Part shown: one piece after another, positions 1-45,427 of the stretch
Numbering within the stretch: the stretch's first letter is position 1
Layout of the letters: the number at the start of each line of letters is the position of its first letter
Assembly (NCBI GenBank): GCA_023129715.1
Contig: JAGMBO010000011.1
Coordinates: 1-45,427, forward strand
Direction: 5' to 3'
From: Candidatus Eiseniibacteriota bacterium
Lineage (GTDB): Bacteria > Eisenbacteria > RBG-16-71-46 > CAIMUX01 > WJJG01
DNA: 45,427 nt
Program-made: the position numbers and the translations under genes
Notes under the pieces: model-generated
Told to the model about the DNA's origin: nothing
Seen by the model: only the letters and a program-made list of their open reading frames with translations
The model's database searches: none

Positions 1-91
1 TCGCTTCATGAATAGTCCGGGCTAGCCTGGCGGCGGTGTTCCGCAATCCGGGCGCCCAGCATGGCCGCGCTGGTCTGCAGTCCGCGGCTGC

Positions 92-982
92 CTAGGTCGA
101 CCGGACATACTCCACCAACCCTTCCAGTGTCTGTTCCAAGTAGAGACGTTCGCGTTGCTGGATATCAGGGTCGAGAAGGGTAACCGTAGCATAGTAGGGA
201 TCCGCATCCAGCAGACGTTCGTGGGCGCGCCCAACCAGATCGTCCGCGGACTCTCTGAGAAGTTCGCGTACGATCTCGACCCAGTGCGGCATTTGCTTGC
301 GGCTGATCTTCATGTACTCCACAGGGTCATCAACCATGCCGAAGTGCGGGAACGCCATGCGCTCCGGCGCCGGCTGCAGGGCGAGGAGTCGGTCGATCGA
401 ATCGAGGGCCACTTCCAGAACGAACCTCCGGGGCGTGGCCGGCCGCAGGTAGATGTGTCCGGGGATCGGAACCCGCAAGCCTACCGCCTCACCGACATAG
501 AGGGTCCCTTCGTGGAGGAAGGAGAGATGGTGGGCGGCATGTCCCGGCGTAGGGATGACCTCAATCCCCGCGCCCTCAATCTCCGACAGAGTTGCGATGC
601 TGGAGGCTGGCACGGGTGGCGGTGGACCATAGGCTTCGGCCACGGGCCGCAGCACGCTGAGAGAGCTCTGCCAGAGCCGAGTGGGATCAATCATGTGCTC
701 GATGCCTTGCTCGTGGCACAGAATGCGCGCGTCGGGGAAGGCCTCGAGTACATGTGCCGCACCGGCGGCGTGATCGATATGGACGTGCGTGAGCAGGATG
801 TAGTCGAGGCGCGTGATCGCCAGAGCCTTCAGCTCGTCGATCAAATGAGCGGCCGAGGTCGGCGGTCCGGGATCGACAAGAAAGCTCATCTCCTGGCTGC
901 AGGAGACCCAGCAGCTCAGGAACTTCTGATGCCCAACGAGCTTCTGGTCGAGGTTGATCATGTGCAGGACCGGGATGCTCAT
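92..982 (-). CDS. MBL-fold metallo-hydrolase at the end of the bam operon
   Basis: A metallo-beta-lactamase-fold hydrolase of about 296 residues. It shows the metal-binding motif THVHIDHAAG (H-x-H-x-D-H), a downstream TPGHAAHH histidine and a late FPHFG histidine, the usual ligands of a two-metal site. There is no signal peptide, so it should act in the cytoplasm. I chose the ATG at 982 because an AAGGA lies 11-12 nt upstream and the protein then begins directly with the fold (MSIPVLHMINL). A longer reading frame reaches 1054 but would run almost into the gene before it. It follows bamI after 83 nt on the same strand and is probably the last gene of the operon. Its substrate is unknown. Given the neighbours, a thioesterase or ring-hydrolysis role on CoA intermediates is possible, but nothing in the sequence proves it. 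The 91 bases to the left hold no recognisable gene. Confidence 0.8.
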   Translation of the reverse strand: MSIPVLHMINLDQKLVGHQKFLSCWVSCSQEMSFLVDPGPPTSAAHLIDELKALAITRLDYILLTHVHIDHAAGAAHVLEAFPDARILCHEQGIEHMIDPTRLWQSSLSVLRPVAEAYGPPPPVPASSIATLSEIEGAGIEVIPTPGHAAHHLSFLHEGTLYVGEAVGLRVPIPGHIYLRPATPRRFVLEVALDSIDRLLALQPAPERMAFPHFGMVDDPVEYMKISRKQMPHWVEIVRELLRESADDLVGRAHERLLDADPYYATVTLLDPDIQQRERLYLEQTLEGLVEYVRST

Positions 983-1065
983 GACGCCAGAATTCCTTAC
1001 AAGTAAGAGTGTTACATCGCCACCCGTTCGCCTGAGACAATCGCGTCCTATCACCGGGTCGTCGC

Positions 1066-1680
1066 CTATTCCTCTGGCGCGGCTTCAGAAGAAACTGAGC
1101 GAAACGCGAAGGCTTCGGTTAAGACGAAAGCCGCCTGAAGATACGATGTCGGGCACAGCGGAAGACATTCCTTGCAGGTAGGGCACTCCCTGGCGGCGAT
1201 CTCCGGAATGAAAGCTATCTCCTTTCTTGTTCCCCGCTCAACAAATCCAACAGCGTTCTTCTTCACGACCTCAGCACAGTATCTGACACATAGCCCGCAA
1301 TGAATGCAAAATGAGGCCTCCTTTTCGAACCGATCCTTGTCTGCTCCATACTCCACCGCCAACTCCTGCAATGGGGGGGAATCCGGGGCATGCGCCAGCA
1401 TCAGCTCCAGAAGGGTTTTGCGGATTCTATCGACCCTCTCGGACCTCGTTCTGACGACCAGATCGTCCTCCACCGGGTGAACGCAGGAGACAACGAGCGT
1501 TGTCGCGCCGCGAAGCTCCACTTCCACGATGCAAATCCGGCAGCCCCCATAGGGCTCTAGCTTCTCGTGGTGGCAGAGCGTGGGTATGAATATCCCCGCA
1601 CTCCGGGCTGCCTCCAGGATGGTCGCCCCTTCCCTTGTGACAACGTCCTTTCCGTCAATCTGCAAGCGGACTTCACTCAT
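1066..1680 (-). CDS. bamI: BamI-like iron-sulfur subunit (NuoG N-terminal/HoxU type) of class II benzoyl-CoA reductase
   Basis: A 204-residue electron-transfer subunit related to the N-terminal part of NuoG and to HoxU. A plant-type [2Fe-2S] ferredoxin domain fills residues 1-75 (Cys in TLCHHEK, GGCRIC and VVSC). Two [4Fe-4S] binding motifs follow, CIHCGLCVRYC near residue 125 and CPTCKECLPLC near residue 165. There is no catalytic molybdopterin domain, as expected for a BamI-length protein. Its ATG overlaps the stop codon of bamH by 4 nt (ATGA), so the two are translationally coupled. In the Geobacter complex BamG, H and I form an NADH-dehydrogenase-like module; this gene sits at the same place in the same order. 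Assignment to Bam rather than to an NADH-linked hydrogenase rests on the whole operon. Confidence 0.85.
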   Translation of the reverse strand: MSEVRLQIDGKDVVTREGATILEAARSAGIFIPTLCHHEKLEPYGGCRICIVEVELRGATTLVVSCVHPVEDDLVVRTRSERVDRIRKTLLELMLAHAPDSPPLQELAVEYGADKDRFEKEASFCIHCGLCVRYCAEVVKKNAVGFVERGTRKEIAFIPEIAARECPTCKECLPLCPTSYLQAAFVLTEAFAFRSVSSEAAPEE

Positions 1681-3605
1681 TGCTTCTTGCTCTTCCTGAC
1701 AATCGCTCTCTGGTCTTCAGGGATGGGAGGCGGAACGGGTTCGCCGGAGATCTTCCTCACCGCGCTGAAGCGGGGCGGGCAGACTTCAAGGCAAGATCCG
1801 CATTTCGTGCATTTCTCCTGGTCGACAATGTGGATCATCTTCTTGCCGCCGTCGATGGCCTCGGCCGGGCACTCTCTGAGGCAACGCCCACAGGCCTGGC
1901 ACTTCTCCGGATCAATGTAATAGGAGATCAGCTCCTTGCAGTACAACGCAGGGCACCGCTTCTCCTTGATGTGCGCCTCATACTCACCTTTGAAGTAGCG
2001 CAACGTGCTTCGGAACGGGTTGGGGGCAGTTTTGCCTAGTGCACAAAGGGAGGCCTCAGCGGCTGTCTCGGAGAGCTCCTCCAAGAGCTCGATGTCGCTC
2101 TCTTTTCCCCTTCCTTCGGTGATGTTGCTGAGGATTTTATGCATCTGCCGCAGGCCTTCCCGGCAAGGGAGGCACTTGCCGCACGATTCATCCGTGAGGA
2201 AGTGAATGAAGTACCGGGCCACATCAACCATGCAGGTATCCTCATCCATGACAATCATCCCACCGGACCCCATCATGGATCCGGCCTGGGTAAGCTCATC
2301 GAAACCAACCTCCAAATCGAGCAGTTCCTCCGGGATGCATCCGCCGGACGGCCCCCCGGTCTGCAGTGCTTTGAACTTCTTGCCTCCGGGGATTCCACCG
2401 CCGATCTTGTAGATGATGTCCCTCAGGGTCATGCCCATTGGGATTTCGACGAGGCCGGTGTTGTTTATCTTGCCGACCAGGGAGAAGATCTTCGTACCCT
2501 TGCTTCCCTCGGTGCCAATTGAGGTAAACGCTCGAGCTCCTTGGTTGATGATCAAAGGAACGTTGGCCCATGTTTCGACATTGTTTATGCAGGTGGGCTT
2601 GGCCCAGAGACCTCTGACGGCCGGATAGGGTGGCCGCGCTCTTGGTTCGCCGGCCTTGCCCTCCAGAGACATGAGGAGAGCTGTTTCTTCACCACAAACG
2701 AAGGCCCCCGCTCCCCGATGCAGCTTGACGTGGAAATCGAACCCGGAGCCGAGCACATTCTTGCCCAGGAGACCGTGCTCTTCGGCGCGCTTCATCGCGC
2801 CGCACAGGTTCTCCACCGCCAGCGGGTATTCCTGGCGAATGTAGATATAGCCCTCATGAGCGCCTATGGCATAGGCACCGATCATCAAACCCTCGAGCAC
2901 GCGATACGGATTCCCCTCCATCAGGGACCTGTCCATGTAGGCGCCCGGGTCTCCCTCGTCGCAGTTGACGACTACATACTTCGGCTCGCCGGGGGCTTCG
3001 CGAGCGACCTCCCACTTCACTCCGGCCGGGAAACCTCCTCCTCCGCGCCCTCTCAGATGTGCTTCCTTCACCTCTGCGATGACCTGCTCCGGCGTCATCT
3101 CGAAGAGCGCCTTGGCCAGGGCCTGGTAGCCCGCAATCGCGAGGTAGTCCTCAATGCTCTCCGGGGCGATCGTGCGATTGGCGCCGAAAACAAGGCGTTC
3201 TTGATGCTTGTAGAAGGGAATATCGGCTTCCCGGGTCACCCGTTCGCCTGTGCTCGGGTCCACATAGAGTAGACGTTCTACAACTCTTCCCTCCTTCAGG
3301 GTCGCTGAGACGATCTCCGGGATGTCCTCGGGCGTTACCTCCAGATAGCAAATCTCCTCAGGTGCGATGACAACGATGGGGCCCTTCTCGCAGAAGCCGT
3401 GACAACCGGTTCTCTTCAGGTCTACCTCGCCTTCCAGGCCTTGCTTCCGGAGTTCCGCCCCAAGAGCGGCGATAACTTCGCCGGCACCCGTGGCAACACA
3501 CCCGGAGCCGGCACACACGGAAACGCAAAGCCTGGCGGGGTCTCTCATGGAGATTGCTTCTTGTCGGAACTTCTCGAGTTCCTCAGGCGAACTTAATCGC
3601 GCCAT
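1677..3605 (-). CDS. bamH: BamH-like NuoF-type flavoprotein of class II benzoyl-CoA reductase
   Basis: A 642-residue NuoF/HydB-type subunit expected to bind FMN and NAD(H). In order it has: an N-terminal thioredoxin-like [2Fe-2S] domain (CAGSGC near residue 31, TGCHGFC near 67); the NuoF core with the glycine-rich GRGGGGFPAG near residue 185 and CDEGDPGAYMDRS near 215; an SLBB-like segment; the 4Fe-4S motif ESCGKCLPCREG near residue 478; and a C-terminal two-cluster ferredoxin (CQACGRCLRECP and CTKCGSCLEVCP). This is the long NuoF form with extra ferredoxin found in bifurcating or confurcating enzymes. It starts 9 nt after bamG and overlaps bamI by 4 nt. Within the Bam complex its job would be electron exchange with NAD(H). 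HydB of a trimeric [FeFe] hydrogenase looks similar, but no hydrogenase catalytic subunit is nearby. Confidence 0.87.
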   Translation of the reverse strand: MARLSSPEELEKFRQEAISMRDPARLCVSVCAGSGCVATGAGEVIAALGAELRKQGLEGEVDLKRTGCHGFCEKGPIVVIAPEEICYLEVTPEDIPEIVSATLKEGRVVERLLYVDPSTGERVTREADIPFYKHQERLVFGANRTIAPESIEDYLAIAGYQALAKALFEMTPEQVIAEVKEAHLRGRGGGGFPAGVKWEVAREAPGEPKYVVVNCDEGDPGAYMDRSLMEGNPYRVLEGLMIGAYAIGAHEGYIYIRQEYPLAVENLCGAMKRAEEHGLLGKNVLGSGFDFHVKLHRGAGAFVCGEETALLMSLEGKAGEPRARPPYPAVRGLWAKPTCINNVETWANVPLIINQGARAFTSIGTEGSKGTKIFSLVGKINNTGLVEIPMGMTLRDIIYKIGGGIPGGKKFKALQTGGPSGGCIPEELLDLEVGFDELTQAGSMMGSGGMIVMDEDTCMVDVARYFIHFLTDESCGKCLPCREGLRQMHKILSNITEGRGKESDIELLEELSETAAEASLCALGKTAPNPFRSTLRYFKGEYEAHIKEKRCPALYCKELISYYIDPEKCQACGRCLRECPAEAIDGGKKMIHIVDQEKCTKCGSCLEVCPPRFSAVRKISGEPVPPPIPEDQRAIVRKSKKQ

Positions 3606-3614
3606 AGATGTTCC

Positions 3615-4067
3615 CTACTCATAGCTCTTCAGCACCTCTACCGCCTCGGCCGGCGACAGTTTGCCGTGCGTCTTCCCGTTGACTTTCATCACCGGTCCTA
3701 GCGCACAGCAGCCGAGACAGTTGACAGTGTCCAGGCTGAACCGCAGATTCAGGTCCGTGTCGCCGGGTCCAATTCCAATTAGATCTTGCACAGCATCGAG
3801 GACACGCGTCGCGCCGCGTACGTGACAGGCAGTGCCCATGCAGATGTGCACTTCATGGCGACCCCGGGGAGACAAACTGAAGGTCTTGTAGAAGGTAGCG
3901 ATATGTTGGATCCGGCTCAGAGGAACCTGGAGTCTGTCGCTGACCCTCTTCAGTGCCTCCCTGGGAAGCCAGCGATTCTCGCCCTGGATCTCGAGGAGTA
4001 CCTGAATGAGGGAACTGGCTTCACCCCCATGGCTCTCGATGATCCGGTCAATCCTGGCGTTGTCCAT
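3615..4067 (-). CDS. bamG: BamG-like NuoE-type [2Fe-2S] subunit
   Basis: A 150-residue NuoE/HydC-type thioredoxin-fold protein. The helical N-terminal part (residues 1-70) carries the NuoE pattern ending in HIATFYKTF. The four [2Fe-2S] ligands are seen as ICMGTAC (residues about 76-81) and NCLGCC (about 115-120). Length is normal for the family. It starts at an ATG preceded only by a weak purine-rich stretch, 20 nt after the bamF stop, and is followed 9 nt later by bamH, its usual partner. It would shuttle electrons between the BamH flavin and the other clusters of the ring-reducing complex. Confidence 0.85.
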   Translation of the reverse strand: MDNARIDRIIESHGGEASSLIQVLLEIQGENRWLPREALKRVSDRLQVPLSRIQHIATFYKTFSLSPRGRHEVHICMGTACHVRGATRVLDAVQDLIGIGPGDTDLNLRFSLDTVNCLGCCALGPVMKVNGKTHGKLSPAEAVEVLKSYE

Positions 4068-4087
4068 GGCCGCTTCTCTCTTCCGCC

Positions 4088-4855
4088 TCAGGCGAGCGCG
4101 TAGCGCTTCCGGTCTACGTCGTACCGGACCAATCCCTGCCTGGATGAGATATTCATGTGTCTTGAGACCACAGCCGGGTTCAGCCCCAGCATCTCAGAGA
4201 CGTCCGCGGTTGATCGGGGTCCCTCCTCGAGGAGCAGCAGAATCTGGCTGACGGCCAGCTTGTCTGCGATGAGCTCCTGGAACAGCCGGTCCATTTGGTC
4301 ACTGGCATAGAACGCGTTGTAGGCCTCTTCTGACTTCAAAGGTACTCTCAGCCTCTCCCGCTCCACCAACTTGATGTAGGGGATGAGTCGAGTGACGGCC
4401 TCGAGCTTGAGCTTCAATCCGTTTCCGCCGACTCCCTCGCCATTGCGAAGCGGTCCCAACTCCTTCAGCTTCTTGACGAAGTCATCCACAACCTCGGTGA
4501 AACGGCTCCCTTCGGCGGCGGACATCCATTCGAGCCTCAACCTCTCGGGGTGTACCCCGATCTGCTCCATCAGCTTGCGGCAGAGATGCATGGTGCTCAG
4601 GGCATCATAGTTCCCTTCGGTGACGTAGTGGCACTCGCCGGGCCAGCAACCACCGATGAATACTCCGTCGGCACCCTGCGAGAAGGCCCGCAGGATGAAT
4701 GCCAGATCGACCCGGCCGCTGCACATGACGCGGATGATCCTGATCTCGTGCGTGTACTGCTGCCTGGAAACTCCAGCCAGATCGGCGGCGGAGTAGGCTC
4801 ACCAGTTGCACAAGAAGCCGATGACTCTCGGCTTGAACTCAAATCCCATGCCCAT
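4088..4855 (-). CDS. bamF: BamF-like selenoprotein (MvhD family), UGA read as selenocysteine
   Basis: MvhD-type electron-transfer subunit of 255 residues if the in-frame TGA at 4799-4801 is read as selenocysteine (residue 19). Upstream of the TGA the frame reads MGMGFEFKPRVIGFLCNW, and after it AYSAADLAGVSRQQY, the family's conserved N terminus; other members have CNWC(S/T)Y at this place. A conventional gene call would start at the internal Met at 4726 and lose 43 residues including a cluster ligand. MCSGRVD, GCWPGECHY and EWMSAAEG follow as in other MvhD proteins. The ATG at 4855 has AAGGAG 10 nt upstream; ATGs at 4861 and 4849 are alternatives. The last 65 residues look like a winged helix-turn-helix (STADVSEMLGLNPAVVSRHM), an unusual fusion. 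It lies 43 nt after bamE and 20 nt before bamG. In MvhD-HdrA pairs this subunit passes electrons to the HdrA flavin. Expression would need the Sec machinery, not seen here. Confidence 0.85.
4760..4780 (-). promoter_or_regulatory. Bacterial SECIS-like hairpin for the bamF UGA codon
   Basis: The hairpin begins 19 nt after the TGA codon (4801-4799). The 5' arm is CTG-G-CTGGA, the loop is GTT, and the 3' arm is TCCAG-G-CAG. This gives 8 base pairs broken by one G-G mismatch, and the first loop base is a G 28 nt after the UGA. Bacterial SECIS elements lie inside the coding sequence just after the UGA, with a small apical loop carrying an early G (often GU); this hairpin fits on distance, loop and length. 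Pairing was checked by eye only. Confidence 0.72.
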
Positions 4856-4898
4856 TGTCATCTCACTCCTTCCCTTGAGCTCCTCTGCCTCTGCCTGC

Positions 4899-7800
4899 TC
4901 ACGTGCTGACTTCCGCGAGGTCTGAAAACGCCGCGTCGATCTGACAGAAGAGCTCTTCGTCGGTGTAGTGCTTCAGAATGATCGCGTTGGTCGGACACTT
5001 CGCGTTGCAGAGACCGTCGCCCTTGCAGAGAACCGGATTGACCCAGGCCTTCTTGCCCTTGGGTGTGTCACGGAATTCGATGGCACCGTACGTGCAGACC
5101 GTGATGCAGGCGCCGCAGGACACACAGTCGTCCTCTCTTACCTCGCAAACAGAGCCGGAAGCTGTGACGGTATCCTGGGAGAGAAGCGTTACAGCGCGGC
5201 CTGCGGCGCCATAGGCCTGGCTAATCGCTTCAAGCATATGCTTGGGATAGTGAGCCGTCCCACACAGGAAAACGCCGTCTGCAGCAAAGTCGACGGGCCG
5301 TAGTTTCACGTGGGCTTCCTGGAAGAAACCATCCGGGCTCATGGGAACCTTAAAGAGACGGGCTGCTTCCCGACTTCCTGCCGAGGGAATCACGGCGGCG
5401 GACAGAACGAGCAAATCGGCGTCCAATTCGAGTTTCTGTCCCAAGATGGGATCCGCTACGGTGACCCGCACAACGGGTTTGCCATGCTCGTTTGTGGCAG
5501 TTTCCACCTGGGGCGGATCCTGCGGTTCCCAGCGGACGAATATGACATCCTTGTCCGCCGCCTCGCGGTAGAAATCCTCCTTGAATCCATAGGATCTCAT
5601 ATCTCGAAAGAGAATGTAGATATCCAGCTCGGGATTCCTCTCTCTGAGCTTCAACGCATTCTTCAGGGCTTCGCCGCAGCATACCCGCGAGCAGTAATTG
5701 CGGTCTTCCTGCCGGCAACCGACGCATTGGATCATCACCAGGCTCTCGGCATCCTGCAGGGATTCGTCTCCCTTGGTGAGTCGCTCCTCCAGCTCGAGCT
5801 GGGTGAGGACCCGGTCATCTTCCCCGTAGAGGTATTCGGTGGGTTTGTATTCGTCGGCGCCGGTGGCCAGGATGGCCGCGCCATGGTGTATCGTTTTGAC
5901 CTGGCCTTCGGCTTCCACCGTGGTCGCGAAATTGCCCACATAACCGGAAACGTCCGTAATCGTCGCTCCATGCGAGACGTGGACGAGGGGGTGCTGGTAC
6001 ACCTTGCGGATTAGATCGCGCAAGTACTCCTGAACATCCAGTCCTTCCAGGCTGTAGTGAATTCTTCGAGCCATCCCTCCCAGGTCAGAATCCTTCTCCA
6101 CCAGGTGAGCCTCGAATCCCTGGTTGGCCAAAGCCAGGGCACTGGTCATGCCGGCCAGGCCGCCCCCGACCACGAGCGCCCTCTTGTTCATGGGCAGATC
6201 GAATTCCTGCAAAGGCTCCAGATGAGTCGTCCGGGCCACCGACATCCGGACGATGTCCTTCGCCTTTTCGGTGGCCTCTTCCTTCTGCTTGGAGTGGACC
6301 CAGGAGCAGTGTTCTCTGATGTTGGCCATGTCGAAGAGATACTGATTGATTCCACCTTCCCGCAGGGTGTCCCGGAATAGCGGTTCGTGTGTCCTCGGGG
6401 TGCAGGCCGCAACGACCACGCGATTGAGTCCTTTCTCGCGGATCGTGCTGGCGATTTGCTCGGCCGCATCCGTGGAGCAGATGAAGAGGCCTTCTTCGGC
6501 GTGGACCACATTGTCCAAGCTCAAGGAATAATCGACCAGGGAACGAACATCGACCACGCGTCCGATATTGGCGCCACAGTGACACGCAAAGACACCGACC
6601 CTGACATCCTCCTTCGAGACATCCCGCTCCGGCGGATAGACGCGTTCTCTGGACAGCTTGCCTCGCCGGGATCTCAGGAGCTCACCCGTGAGGGCATTCG
6701 CCCCACTGGCCGCCACAACCGCCTCGGGAATATCCATGGGACCCAGGAAGGCTCCACTGACGAAGATCCCGGGGCGAGAGGTCTCGATGGGATTCGTGGG
6801 ATTGGTCTTGCAGAACCCGTGAGAGTTGAGCTCGATGCCGAACGTGTCTGCAAGGGACTGTACATCGTGAGGAGGGTTCAGTCCAACGCCCAACACAACC
6901 AGATCGAACTCTTCCTCCTGCACCCCGTCATGGGGCGTGGAGTATCGAATCGTGACATTCTTTGTTTCCGGATTCTCTTTGCCTATCGATACGTAGCTTC
7001 TTACGAATCGAACTCCGGGAAGATTCTCTGCTCTCTGGTAAAACCGCTCGAAATCCTTGCCGTAGGACCGGATGTCGTTGTGGAATATCGCACATTCGGC
7101 CTCAGCGTCATGGTCTTTCGTCAGGATTACCTGCTTCTGGATATAGGTGCAACACACCGCGGAGCAGTAGCTGTTGCCGCCTTCGATTACCTCTCTGGAA
7201 CCGACGCAGTGAATCCAGGCGATTTTGTGCGGATGTTCGTGATCCGAGGGGCGCAGGATCTCTCCTTCGTGCGGCCCGGTGGCACATAGGAGCCGCTCGA
7301 AGTCCAGGCTGGTGACCACGTTCTCGATCAGCCCGTAGCCGTAGTCATTCCGCGGCCTGGGGTCGAACACTTCATAGCCCGGCGACAGAACGATCGCCCC
7401 TACTACGATTTCCTCCCTCTCTGCCTCCTGATGAAGATCTATGGCGTTGTTCTTGCAGACGCCAACGCAGATAAAGCATTTCTTGTCTTTCAAGTACAGA
7501 CACTCATCAGCCACATAGGGGACAAGGGGGACAGCTTGAGAAAAGTAGATGTGGGTGGCCTTGCTCTTGGCCAAGTCTTGATTGAATGGATCCGGGACCA
7601 GGACCGGGCAGTACTCCGCGCAGGTCGTACAACCCGTGCATCTGTCCTCGATGATGTATCTGGGCTTCCTTGTCAGTGTGACCTTGAAGTTTCCTGCCTT
7701 GCCTTCCACGCTGTCCACTTCGGTATAGGTCAGAATCTCGATGTTGGGATGCCTGTCGCATTCGATGAACTTGGGAGACTCAATGCACATGGAGCAGTCA

Positions 7801-7976
7801 TTGGTGGGAAAGGTCTTGTCGAGCTGAGCCATTTTTCCGCCGATGGCCGGTGCCTTCTCGACCAGAAAGACCCTGTACCCCGAGGTAGCGAGATCAAGAG
7901 CGGCTTGAATGCCGCTGATCCCCGCGCCGACGACCATGACGTCTCCGATCGTCCTGTTGGCGAGGCTGTCTACCAT
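4899..7976 (-). CDS. bamE: BamE-like double HdrA-type FAD/iron-sulfur protein
   Basis: A 1025-residue fused HdrA-type flavoprotein, about the size of Geobacter BamE. The first HdrA unit has a dinucleotide motif VVGAGISGIQAAL (residue 15 onward), the NDCSMC and CTGCTTCAEYCP cysteine motifs (61-64, 113-124) and CFICVGVC. A segment with VGVFACHCGANIG (about 465) links to the second unit, which starts near residue 595 (ALVVGGGLAGMTSA) and has MIQCVGCR and YCSRVCC. A C-terminal ferredoxin domain carries CVSCGACITVC (about 949) and CKGDGLCNAKCP. Two FADs and many [4Fe-4S] clusters are expected. HdrA flavins perform electron bifurcation in methanogens; here the protein would be the hub that lifts electrons to the potential needed for ring reduction. 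It starts 60 nt after bamD with only a weak ribosome site (CAGGT). Confidence 0.9.
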   Translation of the reverse strand: MVDSLANRTIGDVMVVGAGISGIQAALDLATSGYRVFLVEKAPAIGGKMAQLDKTFPTNDCSMCIESPKFIECDRHPNIEILTYTEVDSVEGKAGNFKVTLTRKPRYIIEDRCTGCTTCAEYCPVLVPDPFNQDLAKSKATHIYFSQAVPLVPYVADECLYLKDKKCFICVGVCKNNAIDLHQEAEREEIVVGAIVLSPGYEVFDPRPRNDYGYGLIENVVTSLDFERLLCATGPHEGEILRPSDHEHPHKIAWIHCVGSREVIEGGNSYCSAVCCTYIQKQVILTKDHDAEAECAIFHNDIRSYGKDFERFYQRAENLPGVRFVRSYVSIGKENPETKNVTIRYSTPHDGVQEEEFDLVVLGVGLNPPHDVQSLADTFGIELNSHGFCKTNPTNPIETSRPGIFVSGAFLGPMDIPEAVVAASGANALTGELLRSRRGKLSRERVYPPERDVSKEDVRVGVFACHCGANIGRVVDVRSLVDYSLSLDNVVHAEEGLFICSTDAAEQIASTIREKGLNRVVVAACTPRTHEPLFRDTLREGGINQYLFDMANIREHCSWVHSKQKEEATEKAKDIVRMSVARTTHLEPLQEFDLPMNKRALVVGGGLAGMTSALALANQGFEAHLVEKDSDLGGMARRIHYSLEGLDVQEYLRDLIRKVYQHPLVHVSHGATITDVSGYVGNFATTVEAEGQVKTIHHGAAILATGADEYKPTEYLYGEDDRVLTQLELEERLTKGDESLQDAESLVMIQCVGCRQEDRNYCSRVCCGEALKNALKLRERNPELDIYILFRDMRSYGFKEDFYREAADKDVIFVRWEPQDPPQVETATNEHGKPVVRVTVADPILGQKLELDADLLVLSAAVIPSAGSREAARLFKVPMSPDGFFQEAHVKLRPVDFAADGVFLCGTAHYPKHMLEAISQAYGAAGRAVTLLSQDTVTASGSVCEVREDDCVSCGACITVCTYGAIEFRDTPKGKKAWVNPVLCKGDGLCNAKCPTNAIILKHYTDEELFCQIDAAFSDLAEVST

Positions 7977-8036
7977 CTGTCGTGCACCTGTCTCTCTTTC
8001 CGATTCACTCCGACCCTGGCGGGTGTCTTCGCTGCC

Positions 8037-9200
8037 CTACAGCGCCTCCTGGACGATCTCCGTGATCTCCTTGACCTCCATGACTCTGTCATATTCCAGG
8101 ATCAACCTGCTCTCCTCGAAATTGCTGATGCAATATGGGCAGGAAGTGACAAGCACCTCGGCGTGCACCGCATGCGCCTGTTCCACTCTGAGATTGGAGA
8201 ATCGTTCACTCTTTGGCGTTTCCATCCAAATCCTGCCGCCGCCTCCGCCGCAACAGAGGCTGTTGTCACGACAATCCGGCATCTCGATCAGTTCCAAGCC
8301 AGGTACCTTCCTCAAGAGCTCTCTGGGTTCGTCATAGATGCCGTTGTGCCGCCCCAGGTAGCACGGGTCGTGATACGTCACTTTCTTCTCATATGCCCCG
8401 GTGAGTTCGAGCCTTCCTTCGTTGATAAGCTCGAGCAGATACTGGGAGACATGAACGACCTCCAAGTGCACCATGAACTCGGGATACTCGTTCACAAAGG
8501 TGTGGTAGCAATGAGGGGAAGATACCAGTATCTTTCTGACCCCACGATCGACGAAGGTTTTGATGTTTTCCCTGGCCAGGGTCTTGAATACATCCTCAGC
8601 GCCGGTTTTGCGGATGCTTTCGCCGCAGCAATTCTCCTGGGTTCCCAGGATCCCGAACTCTACTCCGGCCTTGTTGAGGATGTTGGCGGTGGCGACAGCC
8701 GCCTTCCTCAGCCTTGGGTCGTAGCTGAAGTAACAGCCGACGAAATACAGAACGTCCATGCCTTCAGCAAAGGGTTTCACCGGCAGGCCGCGCGCCCAAT
8801 CAGCCCGGGCGTTGCGTTCTTCACTCAAGGGGTTACCATGAGAACGAAGGCTTCCCGCGGCGGTGTGAGCCGGACGAGCGGAAGCAGGGAAGACGCCATA
8901 TTGGGAGGCGATCCTGCGCAAAGATACCCCGAGCTCAATCTGTTCCACTCCGCGGGGGCATTCCCGAAGGCAGGTGCCGCAGGTCGTGCAACGCCAAATG
9001 TCTTCGCTCTCGATCTCCGTCAGACCGAAGGCAGCCTCGCGGATGATCTTGCGGATGCTGAAGCTCCTGACCCGATTCCAGGGACAGACGACATCGCACT
9101 TGCCGCACTGATAGCATAGTTTGAAGACATCGCCACCGGCCGCTTTGACCTCAGCAATGACTTCCTTGAACGGGGTTACTGCTTCCACTGCTCTGATCAA
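8037..9200 (-). CDS. bamD: BamD-like HdrD/HdrBC-type iron-sulfur protein with two CCG domains
   Basis: A 387-residue heterodisulfide-reductase-D-like subunit. The N terminus holds two [4Fe-4S] motifs, CYQCGKCDVVCP (Cys 29, 32, 35, 39) and CTTCGTCLRECP (about residue 72). Two CCG domains follow: the first has GCYFSYDP and ENCCGES, the second DPCYLGRHNG and SLCCGGGGG. In HdrB, CCG domains hold non-cubane clusters at the disulfide site; in BamD they are thought to carry Zn and Fe-S centres. The start is a TTG (9198-9200) with GAGG 7 nt upstream; a GTG three codons in is an alternative. It follows bamC by 23 nt. It most likely links the BamBC catalytic unit to BamE. Confidence 0.87.
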   Translation of the reverse strand: MIRAVEAVTPFKEVIAEVKAAGGDVFKLCYQCGKCDVVCPWNRVRSFSIRKIIREAAFGLTEIESEDIWRCTTCGTCLRECPRGVEQIELGVSLRRIASQYGVFPASARPAHTAAGSLRSHGNPLSEERNARADWARGLPVKPFAEGMDVLYFVGCYFSYDPRLRKAAVATANILNKAGVEFGILGTQENCCGESIRKTGAEDVFKTLARENIKTFVDRGVRKILVSSPHCYHTFVNEYPEFMVHLEVVHVSQYLLELINEGRLELTGAYEKKVTYHDPCYLGRHNGIYDEPRELLRKVPGLELIEMPDCRDNSLCCGGGGGRIWMETPKSERFSNLRVEQAHAVHAEVLVTSCPYCISNFEESRLILEYDRVMEVKEITEIVQEAL

Positions 9201-9223
9201 TCCCTTGCCTCGCCTCGGTGCTG

Positions 9224-9769
9224 CTAGCCCTTCCTCGACATTCGGGCAGCTGTATCCAATAGCTTCTGCCAGCCATGTTTGCTCGCCATGGCTTCCAGCC
9301 CGATCTCAATCTCCTCCTGTGCCTCTTCCTCCTCTACTTCCTCTTCCCGCTCTTCGTATATCAGGGCATCAGCCAGGCACCACTGAACACACATCGGTTC
9401 TGATAGGGGCGGCTCGGATTCGCACATGTCGCACTTCAGGGGGAGGCCGGAATCGGGTTCTTTGAACACGTCCCTGGATGGACAGGAAGCCCTGCAGAAG
9501 GAACACTCGTCGTATTCCTTCCCGTCAATCGTGTACTTGTCCCTGCCCGCACACTCGGCAGCAGCATACTCGCCCGCGTAAACGGGGACGTAGATGTCTC
9601 GTAGGGGATCATGAACCACTCGAATACGCGCCCTCCGCGGATTGTTGCTGCTATATTGGGGTGCAGCGTGAAAAGCGGAGCAGATGAGCTCGCATGCGCG
9701 GCATCCATTGCATTTGTCAACGTCAATCTTGATGGTCTTGACGATCTTCTTCCTCTGCTCACCCTTCAA
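9224..9769 (-). CDS. bamC: BamC-like ferredoxin subunit of class II benzoyl-CoA reductase
   Basis: A 181-residue ferredoxin-type subunit (HybA/DmsB-like) that would hand electrons to BamB. Cysteine groups are CNGCRACELIC (residues about 20-30), CSFCRASCP (about 88-96) and CDMCESEPP followed by MCVQWC (about 112-130), enough for about three [4Fe-4S] clusters. The C terminus carries an acidic stretch rich in Glu (about 140-157), which is uncommon for the fold. It begins 17 nt after the bamB stop and lies 23 nt before bamD, so it is part of the same transcript. BamB and BamC form the (BC)2 catalytic unit in Geobacter. Confidence 0.87.
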   Translation of the reverse strand: MKGEQRKKIVKTIKIDVDKCNGCRACELICSAFHAAPQYSSNNPRRARIRVVHDPLRDIYVPVYAGEYAAAECAGRDKYTIDGKEYDECSFCRASCPSRDVFKEPDSGLPLKCDMCESEPPLSEPMCVQWCLADALIYEEREEEVEEEEAQEEIEIGLEAMASKHGWQKLLDTAARMSRKG

Positions 9770-9786
9770 GGTTGGCTTCCTCCGCT

Positions 9787-11793
9787 CTAAGTTTCCTCTT
9801 CTTGCCCGGAAGTCTCTCTGGAAGGAGCGTCTTCACCATCCGCCAAGATTCCCCTCTTCAGGAAGTCCGCGGCTACGTAACCCAGGGACAGTTCGCGCAA
9901 GGACTCTCGAGTCGGAATACCTTGCTCGTTCCACCCCTTGAATCTGTAGTACGTATCGATGAGCTCGGTTTCGAGTTCGGGAAATCTTTTCTTCCAATGG
10001 TCCGCAGGCGGCTTCTCGTCCTTTCTCCTCATACCTCTCCTGATGTTCACGGCTCGAACCAGATTGCGGTTTCTCCTGGCGATTTGCTTGAGGCCTTCTT
10101 CATCCAGATCGATCCCGGTCGCTGCGGAAATCAGGGTCGGCAAGTTGTGTATGTGATACGGAGGCTTCAGAGGAAAGGACGACAGGCCTGCGCACATCCC
10201 GGTGGCGTCATCGATGTAGTGCATCATTTCTTGCCAGTCGACAATTTCGCAGGTTGCGTCAACGCCCGGGTAATGGGGAATGGAGTGTTCTCCGCGCGGC
10301 TCCCAGTCCAGGAAGTGCTGTTTGATCTTCTCGTTGGGAACCTGAATCCAGTCCTTTGCGAATTCCTCTCTTTCCTCTCTCGTCACAAAGGGTGCCTGGG
10401 GGAAATTCCCCTCAATCTGGGTGATGTTGATCTTCTCGCCGGTGGAATACATGAGGAAGTAGATGGGATTCAGCATGCTGAGTTTGAGCGGAAGCTGCTC
10501 GTGTTTCTTGATGTTGTTGTGAGCATATTCTTCCGCGCCGTTGCCGATTTGCTCGGCGGCCCAATGGGTGCCATTGGCGAGGATATCGCCGATCCCTTCT
10601 CGCCGGACGATTCGGTCCAGCAACCAGTAGAATCTCCCCTCGTTGTCGGAAGGCATTCCCGGGAAATGCTGGTCCGTCAAGATGCCGGCTTCGTACAGCT
10701 CGAGGGCGAAGGCCATGACTTGCGGGGCCGAGAATGCATCCACGCCATACTCGGTGGCGCGTTGAGCGATACTCAAACCGAATTCCAGATCCGACATGGC
10801 CGCCATGGTATACGTGAGCTTGGAGAAGCATTTCATCATGTAGGTTGGAAGCCCTGGGACGGAAATGGTTGCCGCGCATTTCATCGGGCAGTTGTGGCAA
10901 CTGATGAGCCGGGTCCGCATGCTCTCCATGGTCCCGGTCCACTGCTCCGCGACTTCCTTGGTCCAGAAGCCCTTTCTGCGGACGCGGGAATTCCCCCAGG
11001 CGAAGTTCTCGGTGTGCCACTTCTCATCATGGATTACCATCTCTTGGGGCGAGCCGAGCCCCGCCAGAATGGGCATGACTCCCGGGATGGGGTTCTCTCT
11101 TCGGACTTTGATGTACTCCAGCACTTCGTTGCAGAGCGCCATGAACTCTTCCGGCCGGGCGATGAAGATGTCCTTGCTTCCGCGGACAGCGATTGCCTTT
11201 AGGCCTTTGTCTCCCATCACGGCGCCGATTCCGCCGCGGCTGGCGCTGGATTTGCCCTGCTCGATGGAAGCGAAATAGACCCGGTTCTCGCCGGCTGTGC
11301 CAATCGCAGACACCTGGGCGTTCGGCTCCTTCAACTCCGCTCTTATGAGTTCTGCGGTTTCAGTAGTGCCCTTGCCCTGCAAGTGAGAGGCATCCCGTAT
11401 TTCTACTTTGTCGTCGTTGATCCAAAGATAGACCAGATCGGAGGACTTGCCGCGAATGATCACTTTGTCGTAACCGGCATACTTCAATTCCGGCGCCCAA
11501 AACCCGCCCATCATGGAAAAGGCCATCAACTGTGTCTGAGGAGAGATGGTAGAGACGATGGTGCGATTGCAGCCGACGGCGGGTGTGCCGACCAGGAGAC
11601 CGGTGCTGAAGATGAGGAGATTGTCGGGAGAAAAGGGCTCAACGTCAGGAGGGACCCTGTCCCACAGAATCTTGGCGTTCGTGCCCAGCCCCCCCAGATA
11701 CAATTCGGTGAGCCTTGGGTCCGTTGCCACCCTCTCGATGTTTCCTCTGGTAAGATCGACTTCCAGATTGAACCCTGTCTCCGCGTACCTCAT
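9787..11793 (-). CDS. bamB: BamB-like tungsten enzyme, catalytic subunit of class II benzoyl-CoA reductase
   Basis: Aldehyde:ferredoxin oxidoreductase-family protein of 668 residues; Geobacter BamB, as I recall, is about 653. It starts MRYAETGF, and the first 200 residues (LYLGGLGTNAKILWDRVPP, GCNRTIVSTISPQT, SMMGGFWAPELKYAGYDK, SSASRGGIGAVMGDKGLK) read like BamB rather than generic AORs. Counting from this start, His260 (EKWHTENF) and Cys322 (MMKCFSK) fall at the numbers reported for the BamB active site. The cluster ligands CHNCPMKC are at 299-306. BamB reduces benzoyl-CoA to cyclohexa-1,5-diene-1-carboxyl-CoA at a tungsten bis-pterin site, without ATP hydrolysis; the reverse direction is also possible. 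The ATG at 11793 is chosen over a frame opening at 11844 because AAAGGAGG sits 7 nt upstream. It is the first structural gene, 85 nt after the TetR gene. Confidence 0.92.
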   Translation of the reverse strand: MRYAETGFNLEVDLTRGNIERVATDPRLTELYLGGLGTNAKILWDRVPPDVEPFSPDNLLIFSTGLLVGTPAVGCNRTIVSTISPQTQLMAFSMMGGFWAPELKYAGYDKVIIRGKSSDLVYLWINDDKVEIRDASHLQGKGTTETAELIRAELKEPNAQVSAIGTAGENRVYFASIEQGKSSASRGGIGAVMGDKGLKAIAVRGSKDIFIARPEEFMALCNEVLEYIKVRRENPIPGVMPILAGLGSPQEMVIHDEKWHTENFAWGNSRVRRKGFWTKEVAEQWTGTMESMRTRLISCHNCPMKCAATISVPGLPTYMMKCFSKLTYTMAAMSDLEFGLSIAQRATEYGVDAFSAPQVMAFALELYEAGILTDQHFPGMPSDNEGRFYWLLDRIVRREGIGDILANGTHWAAEQIGNGAEEYAHNNIKKHEQLPLKLSMLNPIYFLMYSTGEKINITQIEGNFPQAPFVTREEREEFAKDWIQVPNEKIKQHFLDWEPRGEHSIPHYPGVDATCEIVDWQEMMHYIDDATGMCAGLSSFPLKPPYHIHNLPTLISAATGIDLDEEGLKQIARRNRNLVRAVNIRRGMRRKDEKPPADHWKKRFPELETELIDTYYRFKGWNEQGIPTRESLRELSLGYVAADFLKRGILADGEDAPSRETSGQEEET

Positions 11794-11833
11794 TGTTCCC
11801 CCTCCTTTATTGCCTGAATCCGCCTTGCGGGAC

Positions 11834-11855
11834 GGTCTCAGCAAGAAAGGAGACC
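11834..11855 (-). repeat. Small inverted repeat between tetR and bamB
   Basis: GGTCTC and GAGACC flank a 10-nt loop in the 85-nt gap between the TetR stop and the bamB start. It is followed by no T-run and is too weak for a terminator. It could be a small leader hairpin or an operator half-pair. Confidence 0.3.
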
Positions 11856-11878
11856 AGAAAGCGATTCCGGTCTAAGCG

Positions 11879-12517
11879 TTACCTCGGTCTTATGCCGTCG
11901 ATGAAGATGCCGCTGAGCTGCTCCTCCAGTCTCTTCAGGTCGCCGTGACGGCGCGGATTGAACCACATGTATACCCAATTGAGCATGCCGAACAGTGCCA
12001 GGGCAGCCAGGTTGCTGTCCAACTGCTGCTGGGATCCTTCGCAAAGCTCATCAATTATCTCTCTCGTGATCAGGTAATACTCCCGTCGTCTCTCCAGCAC
12101 CTTCTCATAGGCGTCGCCCTTGAGGGATTCCAGCTCCCGGGCACATACCTTGAGTTCTGGCAGGTGTCTGAGAAAATGACCGAGATGGTTTTCCACAACA
12201 AGACGAATGCGTGCTTCAGCGGATTCCTGACTGCCAGCATCAAGGCGGTCCTTGAGATTCTTCACCAGTGAATCAAAGGTGTAGAACTGTATGAGGTAAA
12301 GAACCTCTTCTTTGGATTTGAAGTAGTAGTAAAGCCCCGCAATGCTCATGCCCGCCCGGGACGCGATCTTCCGCATGGAAGCCCGATCATATCCTTCGTC
12401 TGCGATTACCTGAGCGGCGGTGGTAAGGACCGCTGCAAAACGTTCGTCGTACTGAGGGGTTCGTCCGCCATCGCCCGGAACCGGAAAACCTATGCCTGGG
12501 ACCTCTGCTTTCTTCAC
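11879..12517 (-). CDS. TetR-family transcriptional regulator of the bam operon
   Basis: A TetR-type repressor of 212 residues. The DNA-binding helix-turn-helix is clear near residues 27-70 (AAQVIADEGYDRASMRKIASRAG, then AGLYYYFKSKEEVLY written in parts), and the remaining helical domain would sense a small ligand, plausibly an aromatic acyl-CoA. I start it at the GTG at 12517: AGGGGG lies 6 nt upstream, and the promoter -10 box (12553-12558) puts the transcript start near 12546, downstream of the GTG at 12550 that would give a longer protein. It lies directly upstream of bamB in the same direction, so it may be the first gene of the operon and control itself together with the Bam genes. A palindromic site in its promoter supports autoregulation. 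The ligand is inference. Confidence 0.85.
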   Translation of the reverse strand: MKKAEVPGIGFPVPGDGGRTPQYDERFAAVLTTAAQVIADEGYDRASMRKIASRAGMSIAGLYYYFKSKEEVLYLIQFYTFDSLVKNLKDRLDAGSQESAEARIRLVVENHLGHFLRHLPELKVCARELESLKGDAYEKVLERRREYYLITREIIDELCEGSQQQLDSNLAALALFGMLNWVYMWFNPRRHGDLKRLEEQLSGIFIDGIRPR

Positions 12518-12552
12518 CAACTGCCCCCTGGCTGCTTGTCGAACGATCACTC

Positions 12553-12582
12553 AGTATAGTTATCGAACGCTCGTTCGGGCAA
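12553..12582 (-). promoter_or_regulatory. Sigma-70-type promoter for tetR-bam
   Basis: On the minus strand the -35 is TTGCCC (12582-12577) and the -10 is TATACT (12558-12553), with an 18-nt spacer. The -10 matches the consensus at 5 of 6 and the -35 at 4 of 6 positions. The expected start of transcription is close to 12546, about 30 nt before the chosen GTG of the regulator. Confidence 0.6.
12564..12577. promoter_or_regulatory. Palindromic operator in the tetR-bam promoter spacer
   Basis: CGAACG-CT-CGTTCG, a perfect 6+6 inverted repeat with a 2-nt centre, fills the space between the -35 and -10 boxes. TetR-family regulators commonly bind such palindromes and block RNA polymerase. A further CGAACG half-site lies at 12540-12545 and a partial copy ending CGCTCGTTCG at 12841-12850. 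Confidence 0.6.
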
Positions 12583-12978
12583 GCGAAAAGCATCTCTGAC
12601 TCGAGCGTGGGGCTGCCGAGAGCTATCACCATTCATTCTAAGGAGTTGACTCACTCCACTTGCCTCGGGAGCCACATTGTGACCTCCCCCTCTGGGACTG
12701 GATCAGTGGCAAGATCAGCTCGGGCACACGGGTCCGCCCGGATTCCCTGGAGAGTTTGTCTGTGGCTCCCGAAGCTCGCTCTCGGGCTCCGCAGAGCGCC
12801 CGGCGCGCGGGATGCGAACGCTCCGGGTAGCTCCTCGCGACGCTCGTTCGGAGGAGGTCTGCTGCTGGAGTTCTGCCACGGATTCTGACGGGACACGGCG
12901 GGAAGCACTAGACAGAACAGGAACGCCGGATTCGGGCAGCGCTCAACACGCAGAATCCGTGGCCTTCGCGGGACGATA
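12583..12978. other. Gene-poor gap between the bam promoter and the PHP-protein gene
   Basis: About 400 nt with no believable gene. Open frames here lack ribosome sites and recognisable protein features. Apart from the partial operator-like match at 12841-12850 I see no structured element. Because the PHP-protein gene ends at 12979 on the minus strand, its transcript would run through this stretch toward the bam promoter; I found no good terminator. Confidence 0.5.
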
Positions 12979-44029: not shown

Positions 44030-44860
44030 TCAGTCGCCGGGTCCCTCGCCGGGGAGCTCTCTGAACAAGTCATAATGCTGCTTGTTGTTATGCACGAGGA
44101 TCCCATCGGCGAAATAGGTGTGGCAGGGCTCCACCTCCAGGTTGTAGGTCGCGGAGCGCCGGTAGACTCTCTCGATGGTCTCGATCGCCGAGGTGGTTGT
44201 CACCCCGGCGCGCAGGATACCACCGACCTGCGCAGCTCCGGCCTGCACCCAGGAGCCGTTGAGATAGAGCGGGTGATTGGGTGTGATCCGCAGGGTGCCG
44301 TTGACGACGAGGTAGTATTCCGTCATCTCGGCGGGTGTGTGGGTGAACACCTGGGTCACCCGGGCTGGTAGGAGGCAGCCGCTGCGTTCATCGTAGGCCC
44401 GGACCATCTCGCCGGGATGGATCCGCTCAATCAGCTTGTGCGTGCCGTCGGCCATCGTGATCTGCGTCCCGGGGAGGACACAGGGGCCGCAAGTGCACTC
44501 GGTGATGTCGAAGGGCAGCGAGACGCCGTTCCAGCACCCTCCGGGGCCGCACTCGAAAGTCCTGTGCCGCTCGTGTTCCCGGCCGTTGCACTCCCACTTC
44601 ACGTCCATCCAGTGGAAGCCGTAGGGCCAGCCCATCTCGCACCACTCGGTCGTCAATTCGTCGTTGGGGTGCAGGTGCACGGTGTCGACGTAGCCCCAGT
44701 CATCGAAGTAGAGATCGACCTCCACAAAGCAATCGGTACAGTTGGTGAGCCGGTACTGGAAACAGCCGTCCGGGCAATCGGCGCTGACCCCTGAGGGCAG
44801 CAGGATCACGATCATGCCCAGCGCAAAGGCCAAGACCGTTCTTCGGAATCCGGGTGACAT
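44030..44860 (-). CDS. Secreted cysteine-rich protein with C-terminal Hint (intein/Hedgehog-type) domain
   Basis: A 276-residue exported protein. AAAGGAGG lies 7 nt before the ATG at 44860; the signal peptide is RRTVLAFALGMIVILLPSGVSA. Residues 25-125 form a compact cysteine-rich domain (DCPDGC, NCTDC, WECN, FECGPGGC, ECTCGPC). A Hint domain follows: Cys127 in CVLPGTQITMADG starts it, TPNHPLYLNGSW holds the conserved His block, and FADGILVHN (His257-Asn258) ends it. Only 18 residues remain after that Asn. Hint domains cleave or splice the chain next to the first Cys or after the terminal Asn. The next residue is Asn, not Cys/Ser/Thr, so splicing is unlikely; self-cleavage or attachment of the N-terminal domain to another molecule is more plausible, as in bacterial intein-like domains. 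No toxin domain follows. Confidence 0.85.
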   Translation of the reverse strand: MSPGFRRTVLAFALGMIVILLPSGVSADCPDGCFQYRLTNCTDCFVEVDLYFDDWGYVDTVHLHPNDELTTEWCEMGWPYGFHWMDVKWECNGREHERHRTFECGPGGCWNGVSLPFDITECTCGPCVLPGTQITMADGTHKLIERIHPGEMVRAYDERSGCLLPARVTQVFTHTPAEMTEYYLVVNGTLRITPNHPLYLNGSWVQAGAAQVGGILRAGVTTTSAIETIERVYRRSATYNLEVEPCHTYFADGILVHNNKQHYDLFRELPGEGPGD

Positions 44861-44959
44861 GGTGACGCCTCCTTTCTGGGTTCCTGCCCGCGACACGGGA
44901 CTCGAGGGCCCTTGGGAACCGCCCCGCATCGCAGCTCTTCCTCCTGTGTGGCGTGCGCT

Positions 44960-44988
44960 ATTATAGTGCATGTAACAATGCACAACAA
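44960..44988 (-). promoter_or_regulatory. Promoter of the Hint-protein gene
   Basis: On the minus strand TATAAT (44965-44960) is a perfect -10 box; TTGTTG (44988-44983) is a weak -35 at 17 nt. The expected leader is about 95 nt to the ATG at 44860. Confidence 0.65.
44966..44983. promoter_or_regulatory. Inverted repeat in the promoter spacer of the Hint-protein gene
   Basis: GTGCAT-GTAACA-ATGCAC, 6+6 bp with a 6-nt centre, fills the spacer between the -35 and -10 boxes, so a protein bound here would block RNA polymerase. Confidence 0.5.
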
Positions 44989-45427
44989 GCACCATAATGC
45001 AGCATATCATCATGATGGGCGGATCGGGGGCGCCGAGTCGCAACCGATTATGAATTCACGCCTTGGAGAGGAAGTGAGCCCCGAGGAGATTCACTCATTC
45101 AGTGCGCGCCAACAGCCTGCCGGGGCATCTAGTTGGGTGACCCGGCTGCGTGGACCGTCCTGTCTCTCTCGCTTCACGGTGTGCCTCCGACGGGTCCCTG
45201 ATGTGCGTGCGTGCGCCCAGGGCTCTCCGGGGAGTTGCCGGACCGGCGTGAACCCGACCGACAGTCGGAAGGCCGGCGTGCCCATCAGGAGCACGATGGT
45301 GAGGGCGAAAAGCTCGGCGAAGATGAGGGCGTTCCTTTCTCGCTTTGGGTTGCTGCGACGCAACCGAGCCGATCTCAGGCTGAACAATGTGACTCAACCC
45401 CGTGTAGCCTGCCACATTATTCTGAAG
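44989..45427. other. Right end of the window, no supported gene
   Basis: About 440 nt. A minus-strand open frame (45091-45387) includes a short hydrophobic stretch, but it begins at a TTG without a ribosome site and I do not call it. No mobile element, RNA gene or terminator was recognised. Confidence 0.4.

What the first reader, a model, noticed from the sequence alone, without database searches (positions are those of the whole stretch)
4760..4861. bamF is a hidden selenoprotein: in-frame UGA with a fitting bacterial SECIS hairpin
Seen directly: the frame upstream of the obvious start continues through TGA (4799-4801) into the conserved MvhD N terminus, giving CNW-U-AYSAADLAGVSR, with a ribosome site before an ATG at 4855. 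The TGA replaces the second Cys of the CNWC motif. A hairpin (CTG-G-CTGGA, loop GTT, TCCAG-G-CAG) begins 19 nt after the TGA with G first in the loop. Known: Geobacter and Desulfococcus benzoate degraders use selenocysteine in anaerobic benzoate metabolism, including a BamF-type protein, and methanococcal VhuD has Sec in this family. A standard gene caller would truncate the protein by 43 residues and hide this.
Basis: partly seen in the sequence, partly recalled or inferred. Interest (0 to 1): 0.85.

Follow-up and report, generated by a model that had tools for sequence, protein, structure and literature searches.

The report
Selenocysteine BamF in acquired ring-reductase cluster
An apparent stop codon near the start of one gene is really a selenocysteine codon in BamF, an electron-transfer subunit of a tungsten enzyme that breaks aromatic rings without oxygen; it is a real and well-supported selenoprotein, but of an already known kind, found here in a bacterium that probably acquired the whole enzyme by gene transfer.

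Summary
At 4799-4801 an in-frame TGA interrupts a 257-codon FlpD/MvhD-type gene and replaces the second Cys of CNWC. The gene is bamF in a complete bamBCDEFGHI cluster (11844-1066, minus). Three tests support selenocysteine. (1) The genome has tRNA-Sec, selA, selB and two selD, one of them itself with a Sec codon. (2) In 51 bam clusters from other genomes, BamF has TGA at exactly this codon in 44 and Cys in 7. (3) A 13-nt element, CUGGA-GUU-UCCAG, begins 22 nt after the UGA; its five codons are 86-100% fixed in TGA genes against 15-24% expected. It is a new member of a known kind: MvhD/VhuD CxxU selenoproteins and selenium-containing class II benzoyl-CoA reductase. What is new is modest. The host phylum otherwise lacks BamB in the genomes examined, and the cluster looks transferred. 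This operon has the minority state Sec-BamF with Cys-BamE, whereas most clusters have Sec in both. The genome lacks a canonical BamA, so the substrate is uncertain.

The parts
4088..4861 (-). bamF, 257 codons read through UGA; FlpD/MvhD domain (residues 13-136) plus C-terminal ArsR-type HTH (205-247)
   Evidence: bam neighbours
4799..4801 (-). in-frame TGA read as selenocysteine (residue 21), second position of C-x-x-U
   Evidence: TGA at the same codon in 44 of 51 bam-linked homologues, TGC/TGT in 7
4764..4776 (-). conserved SECIS core: stem CUGGA/UCCAG, loop GUU, begins 22 nt after the UGA
   Evidence: synonymous-site conservation, near-invariant core pairs, 42 of 42 copies of the 13-mer stand at this spot
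4866..4870 (-). AGGAG ribosome-binding-like site before ATG 4861/4855
   Evidence: sequence
9787..11844 (-). bamB, tungsten benzoyl-CoA reductase subunit; the W ligand is Cys (residue 339 of the ORF, Cys322 of 4z3w)
   Evidence: Cys322 as ligand from PMC12096430
9224..9769 (-). bamC, ferredoxin-like subunit
8037..9200 (-). bamD, HdrCB-like (CCG domains)
4899..7976 (-). bamE, HdrA-like with two flavin domains; residue 64 is Cys (CSMC) where most relatives have Sec (CSMU)
3615..4067 (-). bamG, NuoE-like
1677..3605 (-). bamH, NuoF-like
1066..1680 (-). bamI, NuoG-N/HoxU-like
1..12600 (.). lower-GC island carrying the bam cluster (57.7% against 64.3% for the rest), likely horizontally acquired; right boundary approximate

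Best explanation
The gene is bamF of a class II (tungsten, ATP-independent) benzoyl-CoA reductase-type complex, and its TGA at 4799-4801 is decoded as selenocysteine. SelB carrying Sec-tRNA-Sec recognises the CUGGA-GUU-UCCAG hairpin 22 nt downstream and delivers Sec at the UGA. Shown here by sequence: the reading frame, the homology, the UGA/Cys interchange at one codon, the conserved recoding element and the genome's Sec machinery. Inferred: that the protein is made, that Sec21 with four other conserved Cys surrounds the [2Fe-2S] site of the MvhD fold, and that BamF passes electrons between the NADH/ferredoxin module (BamGHI) and the HdrA-like bifurcating subunit BamE. The cluster was probably gained by horizontal transfer into a lineage that already decoded Sec.
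For: Frame and domain. All five family Cys positions are kept, one as U, against MvhD of solved structures. tRNA-Sec with TCA anticodon, SelB 317.9 bits, SelA 537.9 bits, SelD 410 and 373 bits, the second with Sec in GAGUASK. TGA in 44 of 51 bamB-linked BamF genes. Codons +8 to +12 use one synonym in 98, 98, 95, 100 and 86% of 44 TGA genes with locus GC 36-69%, expected 15-24%; no other 4- or 6-fold codon among the 57 sense codons tabulated (-12 to +45) exceeds 80%. The 13-mer occurs 42 times in 1.37 Mb, always at this place. Host: BamB in 1 of 47 phylum genomes, selA over cut-off in 40 of 47, a same-contig AcrB is 82% identical to a same-family genome, island GC and tetranucleotides deviate.
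Against: No protein or RNA data. The hairpin is not unusually stable for its composition, and its core shows no compensatory changes because it hardly varies. The genome is a 95.9% complete draft, and the reads at this codon could not be seen. No Rfam family matched the window.
Confidence: 0.96

Rival explanations
1. The TGA is a true stop and translation starts at ATG 4726, giving a short FlpD protein; the upstream part is a relic.
For: A 212-aa ORF starts at 4726; a gene caller would choose it.
Against: The upstream frame is conserved at protein level in dozens of relatives with TGA or Cys codons at the same place; the SECIS codons are frozen; Sec machinery is present; the truncated form would lose two of the five conserved Cys/Sec.
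Confidence: 0.02
2. A sequencing or assembly error, or a nonsense mutation, turned TGC/TGT into TGA in this draft genome.
For: Draft assembly; one base would suffice.
Against: The same TGA stands in 44 other clusters, and the window carries the TGA-type hairpin codons GCT GGA GTT TCC AGG rather than those of the Cys genes.
Confidence: 0.01
3. The gene is a general MvhD of an Hdr-hydrogenase system, not BamF.
For: Best NCBIfam models are HdrA2 and VhuD.
Against: It lies in the complete bamB-I order next to a BamB 76% identical to Geobacter BamB, has a C-terminal HTH like the one listed for G. metallireducens bamF in PMC1924859, and matches bam-linked genes (up to 77% identity) better than other MvhD of its phylum (at most 56-57%).
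Confidence: 0.01

Closest known systems
BamF of class II benzoyl-CoA reductase (G. metallireducens bamF Gmet_2083; bam clusters of Desulfobacterota)
   Same: Gene order bamBCDEFGHI, FlpD plus HTH domains; in most relatives CxxU at the same codon and the same 13-nt element
   Different: Host is outside Desulfobacterota by its nearest relatives; bamE here has Cys where most clusters have Sec; no canonical BamA in the genome
MvhD/VhuD/FrhD selenoproteins (PF02662, motif CxxU)
   Same: Family and Sec position agree with the catalogued motif (PMC13188914); Sec MvhD reported in Desulfobacterium autotrophicum (PMC2702500)
   Different: Part of an aromatic-ring reductase rather than a hydrogenase; bacterial SECIS directly after the UGA
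Sec-containing BamE of Desulfococcus multivorans (PMC5109826)
   Same: Selenium in the same enzyme complex
   Different: Sec is in BamF here; BamE is the Cys form

Membership tests
Selenoprotein (bacterial UGA-Sec) | in-frame UGA aligned to a redox Cys of homologues | tested here: met
Selenoprotein (bacterial UGA-Sec) | SECIS hairpin just downstream of the UGA | tested here: met
   conserved core from +22 nt by synonymous constraint; excess folding stability was not found
Selenoprotein (bacterial UGA-Sec) | tRNA-Sec, SelA, SelB and SelD in the genome | tested here: met
Selenoprotein (bacterial UGA-Sec) | Sec present in the protein | not testable with these tools
   needs mass spectrometry or 75Se
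Class II benzoyl-CoA reductase (Bam) | BamB with Cys ligand to W, and complete BamC-I | tested here: met
Class II benzoyl-CoA reductase (Bam) | reduction of benzoyl-CoA | not testable with these tools
   needs an enzyme assay
Benzoyl-CoA degradation pathway (beyond the reductase) | ring hydrolase BamA/Oah in the genome | tested here: not met
   best Oah hit 104.8 bits, cut-off 464; controls Desulfosarcina alkanivorans 556.8 and NaphS2 548.7. This bears on the pathway, not on reductase membership; about 4% of the genome may be missing
MvhD/VhuD (PF02662) CxxU | FlpD domain over gathering score with CxxU | tested here: met

The most novel reading that the evidence does not exclude
Selenium use in the Bam complex is nested: Sec occurs in BamF alone (as here) or in BamF and BamE together, never in BamE alone, each with its own fixed recoding element; and Bam has spread with its Sec codons into phyla without BamA, where it may reduce another aryl-CoA.
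Probability: 0.4. Interest if true: 0.5.

Novelty: new member of a known kind. Interest (0 to 1): 0.36.

Why it matters
It shows that Sec-blind gene calling would truncate a subunit of an environmentally important ring-reducing enzyme in many genomes. It gives a nearly invariant 13-nt recoding element that can serve as a search tag. It places a selenium- and tungsten-dependent ring reductase in a phylum where 46 other examined genomes lack it. The three natural states (Sec/Sec, Cys/Sec, Cys/Cys for BamE/BamF) allow a test of what selenium does in an electron-bifurcating complex.

Tried and rejected
Folding energy as evidence for the SECIS: rejected, no excess over shuffles or synonymous recodings. 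Covariation: uninformative, the core is nearly invariant. A first regular expression for BamF found nothing because of a wrong spacing and was replaced by a six-frame search. Rfam scan of the window: nothing. The BamB tree is poorly resolved and mixes phyla, so I do not infer the direction of Sec gain or loss from it. Primary papers on Se in Bam (Peters 2004, Kung 2009, Huwiler 2019) are not held. Mis-binning of the contig was considered and rejected, because the same contig carries a gene 82% identical to a same-family genome.

Full report
Observation. The finding lies on the minus strand. The TGA at 4799-4801 sits in frame between an ATG (4861 or 4855, with AGGAG at 4870-4866) and the rest of a FlpD/MvhD protein. 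The read-through protein scores 174.7 bits to PF02662; the protein from the next ATG (4726) only 114.3 bits. Everything stated as seen is in the sequence.

What the gene is. Minus-strand neighbours in order are BamB (9787-11844), BamC, BamD, BamE, BamF, BamG, BamH and BamI (1066-1680). BamB matches the solved Geobacter metallireducens enzyme 4z3w over its whole length at 76% identity and keeps the Cys that ligates tungsten (ligand from PMC12096430). BamF carries a C-terminal ArsR-type HTH; the G. metallireducens gene list in PMC1924859 also describes bamF as a hydrogenase delta subunit with HTH.

Selenocysteine, test 1: machinery. The genome (4.83 Mb, 95.9% complete) has a tRNA-Sec over the Rfam cut-off, confirmed by ARAGORN with anticodon TCA, SelB, SelA and two SelD. 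The second SelD has its own in-frame TGA, in GAGUASK, so bamF is at least the second selenoprotein gene of the genome.

Test 2: relatives. A scan of GTDB genomes with BamB gave 80 bam loci. BamF could be read in 51: TGA at exactly this codon in 44, TGC/TGT in 7. Of the seven, five are titled Bacteroidetes or Bacteroidales, one Dehalococcoidia and one Deltaproteobacteria. Three MvhD genes of the host's class, outside bam as far as seen (their genomes have no BamB), also have TGA here, while many paralogues have Cys, including one in the window's own genome.

Test 3: recoding element. In 44 TGA genes (43 loci plus the window) with locus GC of 36-69%, codons +8 to +12 after the UGA (GCT GGA GTT TCC AGA/AGG) use one synonym in 98, 98, 95, 100 and 86% of cases, against 15-24% expected from base composition. 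Of the 57 sense codons tabulated, these are the only 4- or 6-fold ones above 80%. The Cys genes of the Bacteroidota type do not keep the set; the Dehalococcoidia Cys gene keeps it in part. The resulting RNA is CUGGA-GUU-UCCAG. The 13-mer occurs 42 times in 1.37 Mb of these loci and always 22 nt after the BamF UGA. The evidence is nucleotide constraint, not energy: the fold is not more stable than shuffles or synonymous recodings.

BamE. At residue 64, in a CSM[C/U] motif, BamE has Sec in 53 loci and Cys in the others that could be read. Of 51 loci with both genes, 40 have Sec in both, 7 have Cys in both, 4 have Cys-BamE with Sec-BamF, and none has the reverse. The window is a fifth case of Cys-BamE with Sec-BamF, like its nearest relative L048 (a Latescibacterota record), L052, L058 and L122. 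The Sec form of bamE also has a near-constant stretch after its UGA that the window's bamE lacks. D. multivorans BamE was reported as a selenoprotein (PMC5109826). The BamB tree is too weakly resolved to polarise gains and losses.

Host and transfer. BamB occurs in only this genome among 47 of its phylum, though selA passes the cut-off in 40 of the 47. The contig belongs to the host, because a transporter gene on it is 82% identical to a same-family genome. The first 12.6 kb have 57.7% GC against 64.3% for the rest, and a deviating tetranucleotide profile. I infer horizontal gain of a selenium-dependent cluster by a lineage able to decode it. RpoB is 63% identical to that of L048's genome, against about 51% for two others tested, which hints at an FCB-type phylum near Latescibacterota; the name is not established.

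Function. By analogy with the literature (PMC9304861; PMC12096430), BamGHI and the HdrA-like BamE bifurcate electrons and BamB reduces the ring. BamF as an MvhD-type subunit should pass electrons between the modules. Sec21 is one of five Cys/Sec positions conserved with solved MvhD. A changed cluster potential or protection from oxidation by Sec is a plausible benefit but is not shown. The substrate is open: the genome has no BamA-type hydrolase over the cut-off, while two control genomes with bam do.

Known or new. MvhD/VhuD with CxxU is a catalogued selenoprotein family (PMC13188914), and Sec MvhD is known in bacteria (PMC2702500). From my own knowledge, not checked here, the Geobacter Bam complex is reported to contain selenocysteine (Huwiler et al. 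2019, PNAS), and class II enzymes have been called W/Se-containing. So this is a new member of a known kind, with modest new points in the host, the mixed Cys/Sec state and the fixed recoding element.

Noticed in passing
window 7785-7787 (BamE codon 64, minus) and loci L048-L127: BamE residue 64 is Sec (CSMU) in 53 of the loci where it was read and Cys in the window; Sec-BamE without Sec-BamF was never seen in loci where both genes could be read.
   Followed up: partly
G000:C98:38000-65195 (L138, L139): A separate cluster with AMP-binding ligase, HGD-D subunit, BadF/BcrD-type activase, a second AOR, PadH/PadI-like genes, Oah-like and Had-like genes and thiolases: possibly a second aryl-CoA route; a similarly scoring Oah-like gene is in the genome of L048.
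   Followed up: partly
window 1-12600: The bam region has lower GC and another tetranucleotide profile than the rest of the contig, suggesting horizontal transfer.
   Followed up: yes
L014 (G000:C109) and L015 (G000:C138): Two selD genes, one with Cys in a long open frame (892 codons, possibly a fusion) and one with Sec.
   Followed up: partly
window 44030-45043 minus: A protein with Hint/pretoxin-HINT domain matches, near secreted-type beta-helix and FlgD-Ig proteins.
   Followed up: no
window 4121-4249 minus: ArsR-type HTH at the C-terminus of the electron-transfer subunit BamF; its role is unexplained.
   Followed up: no
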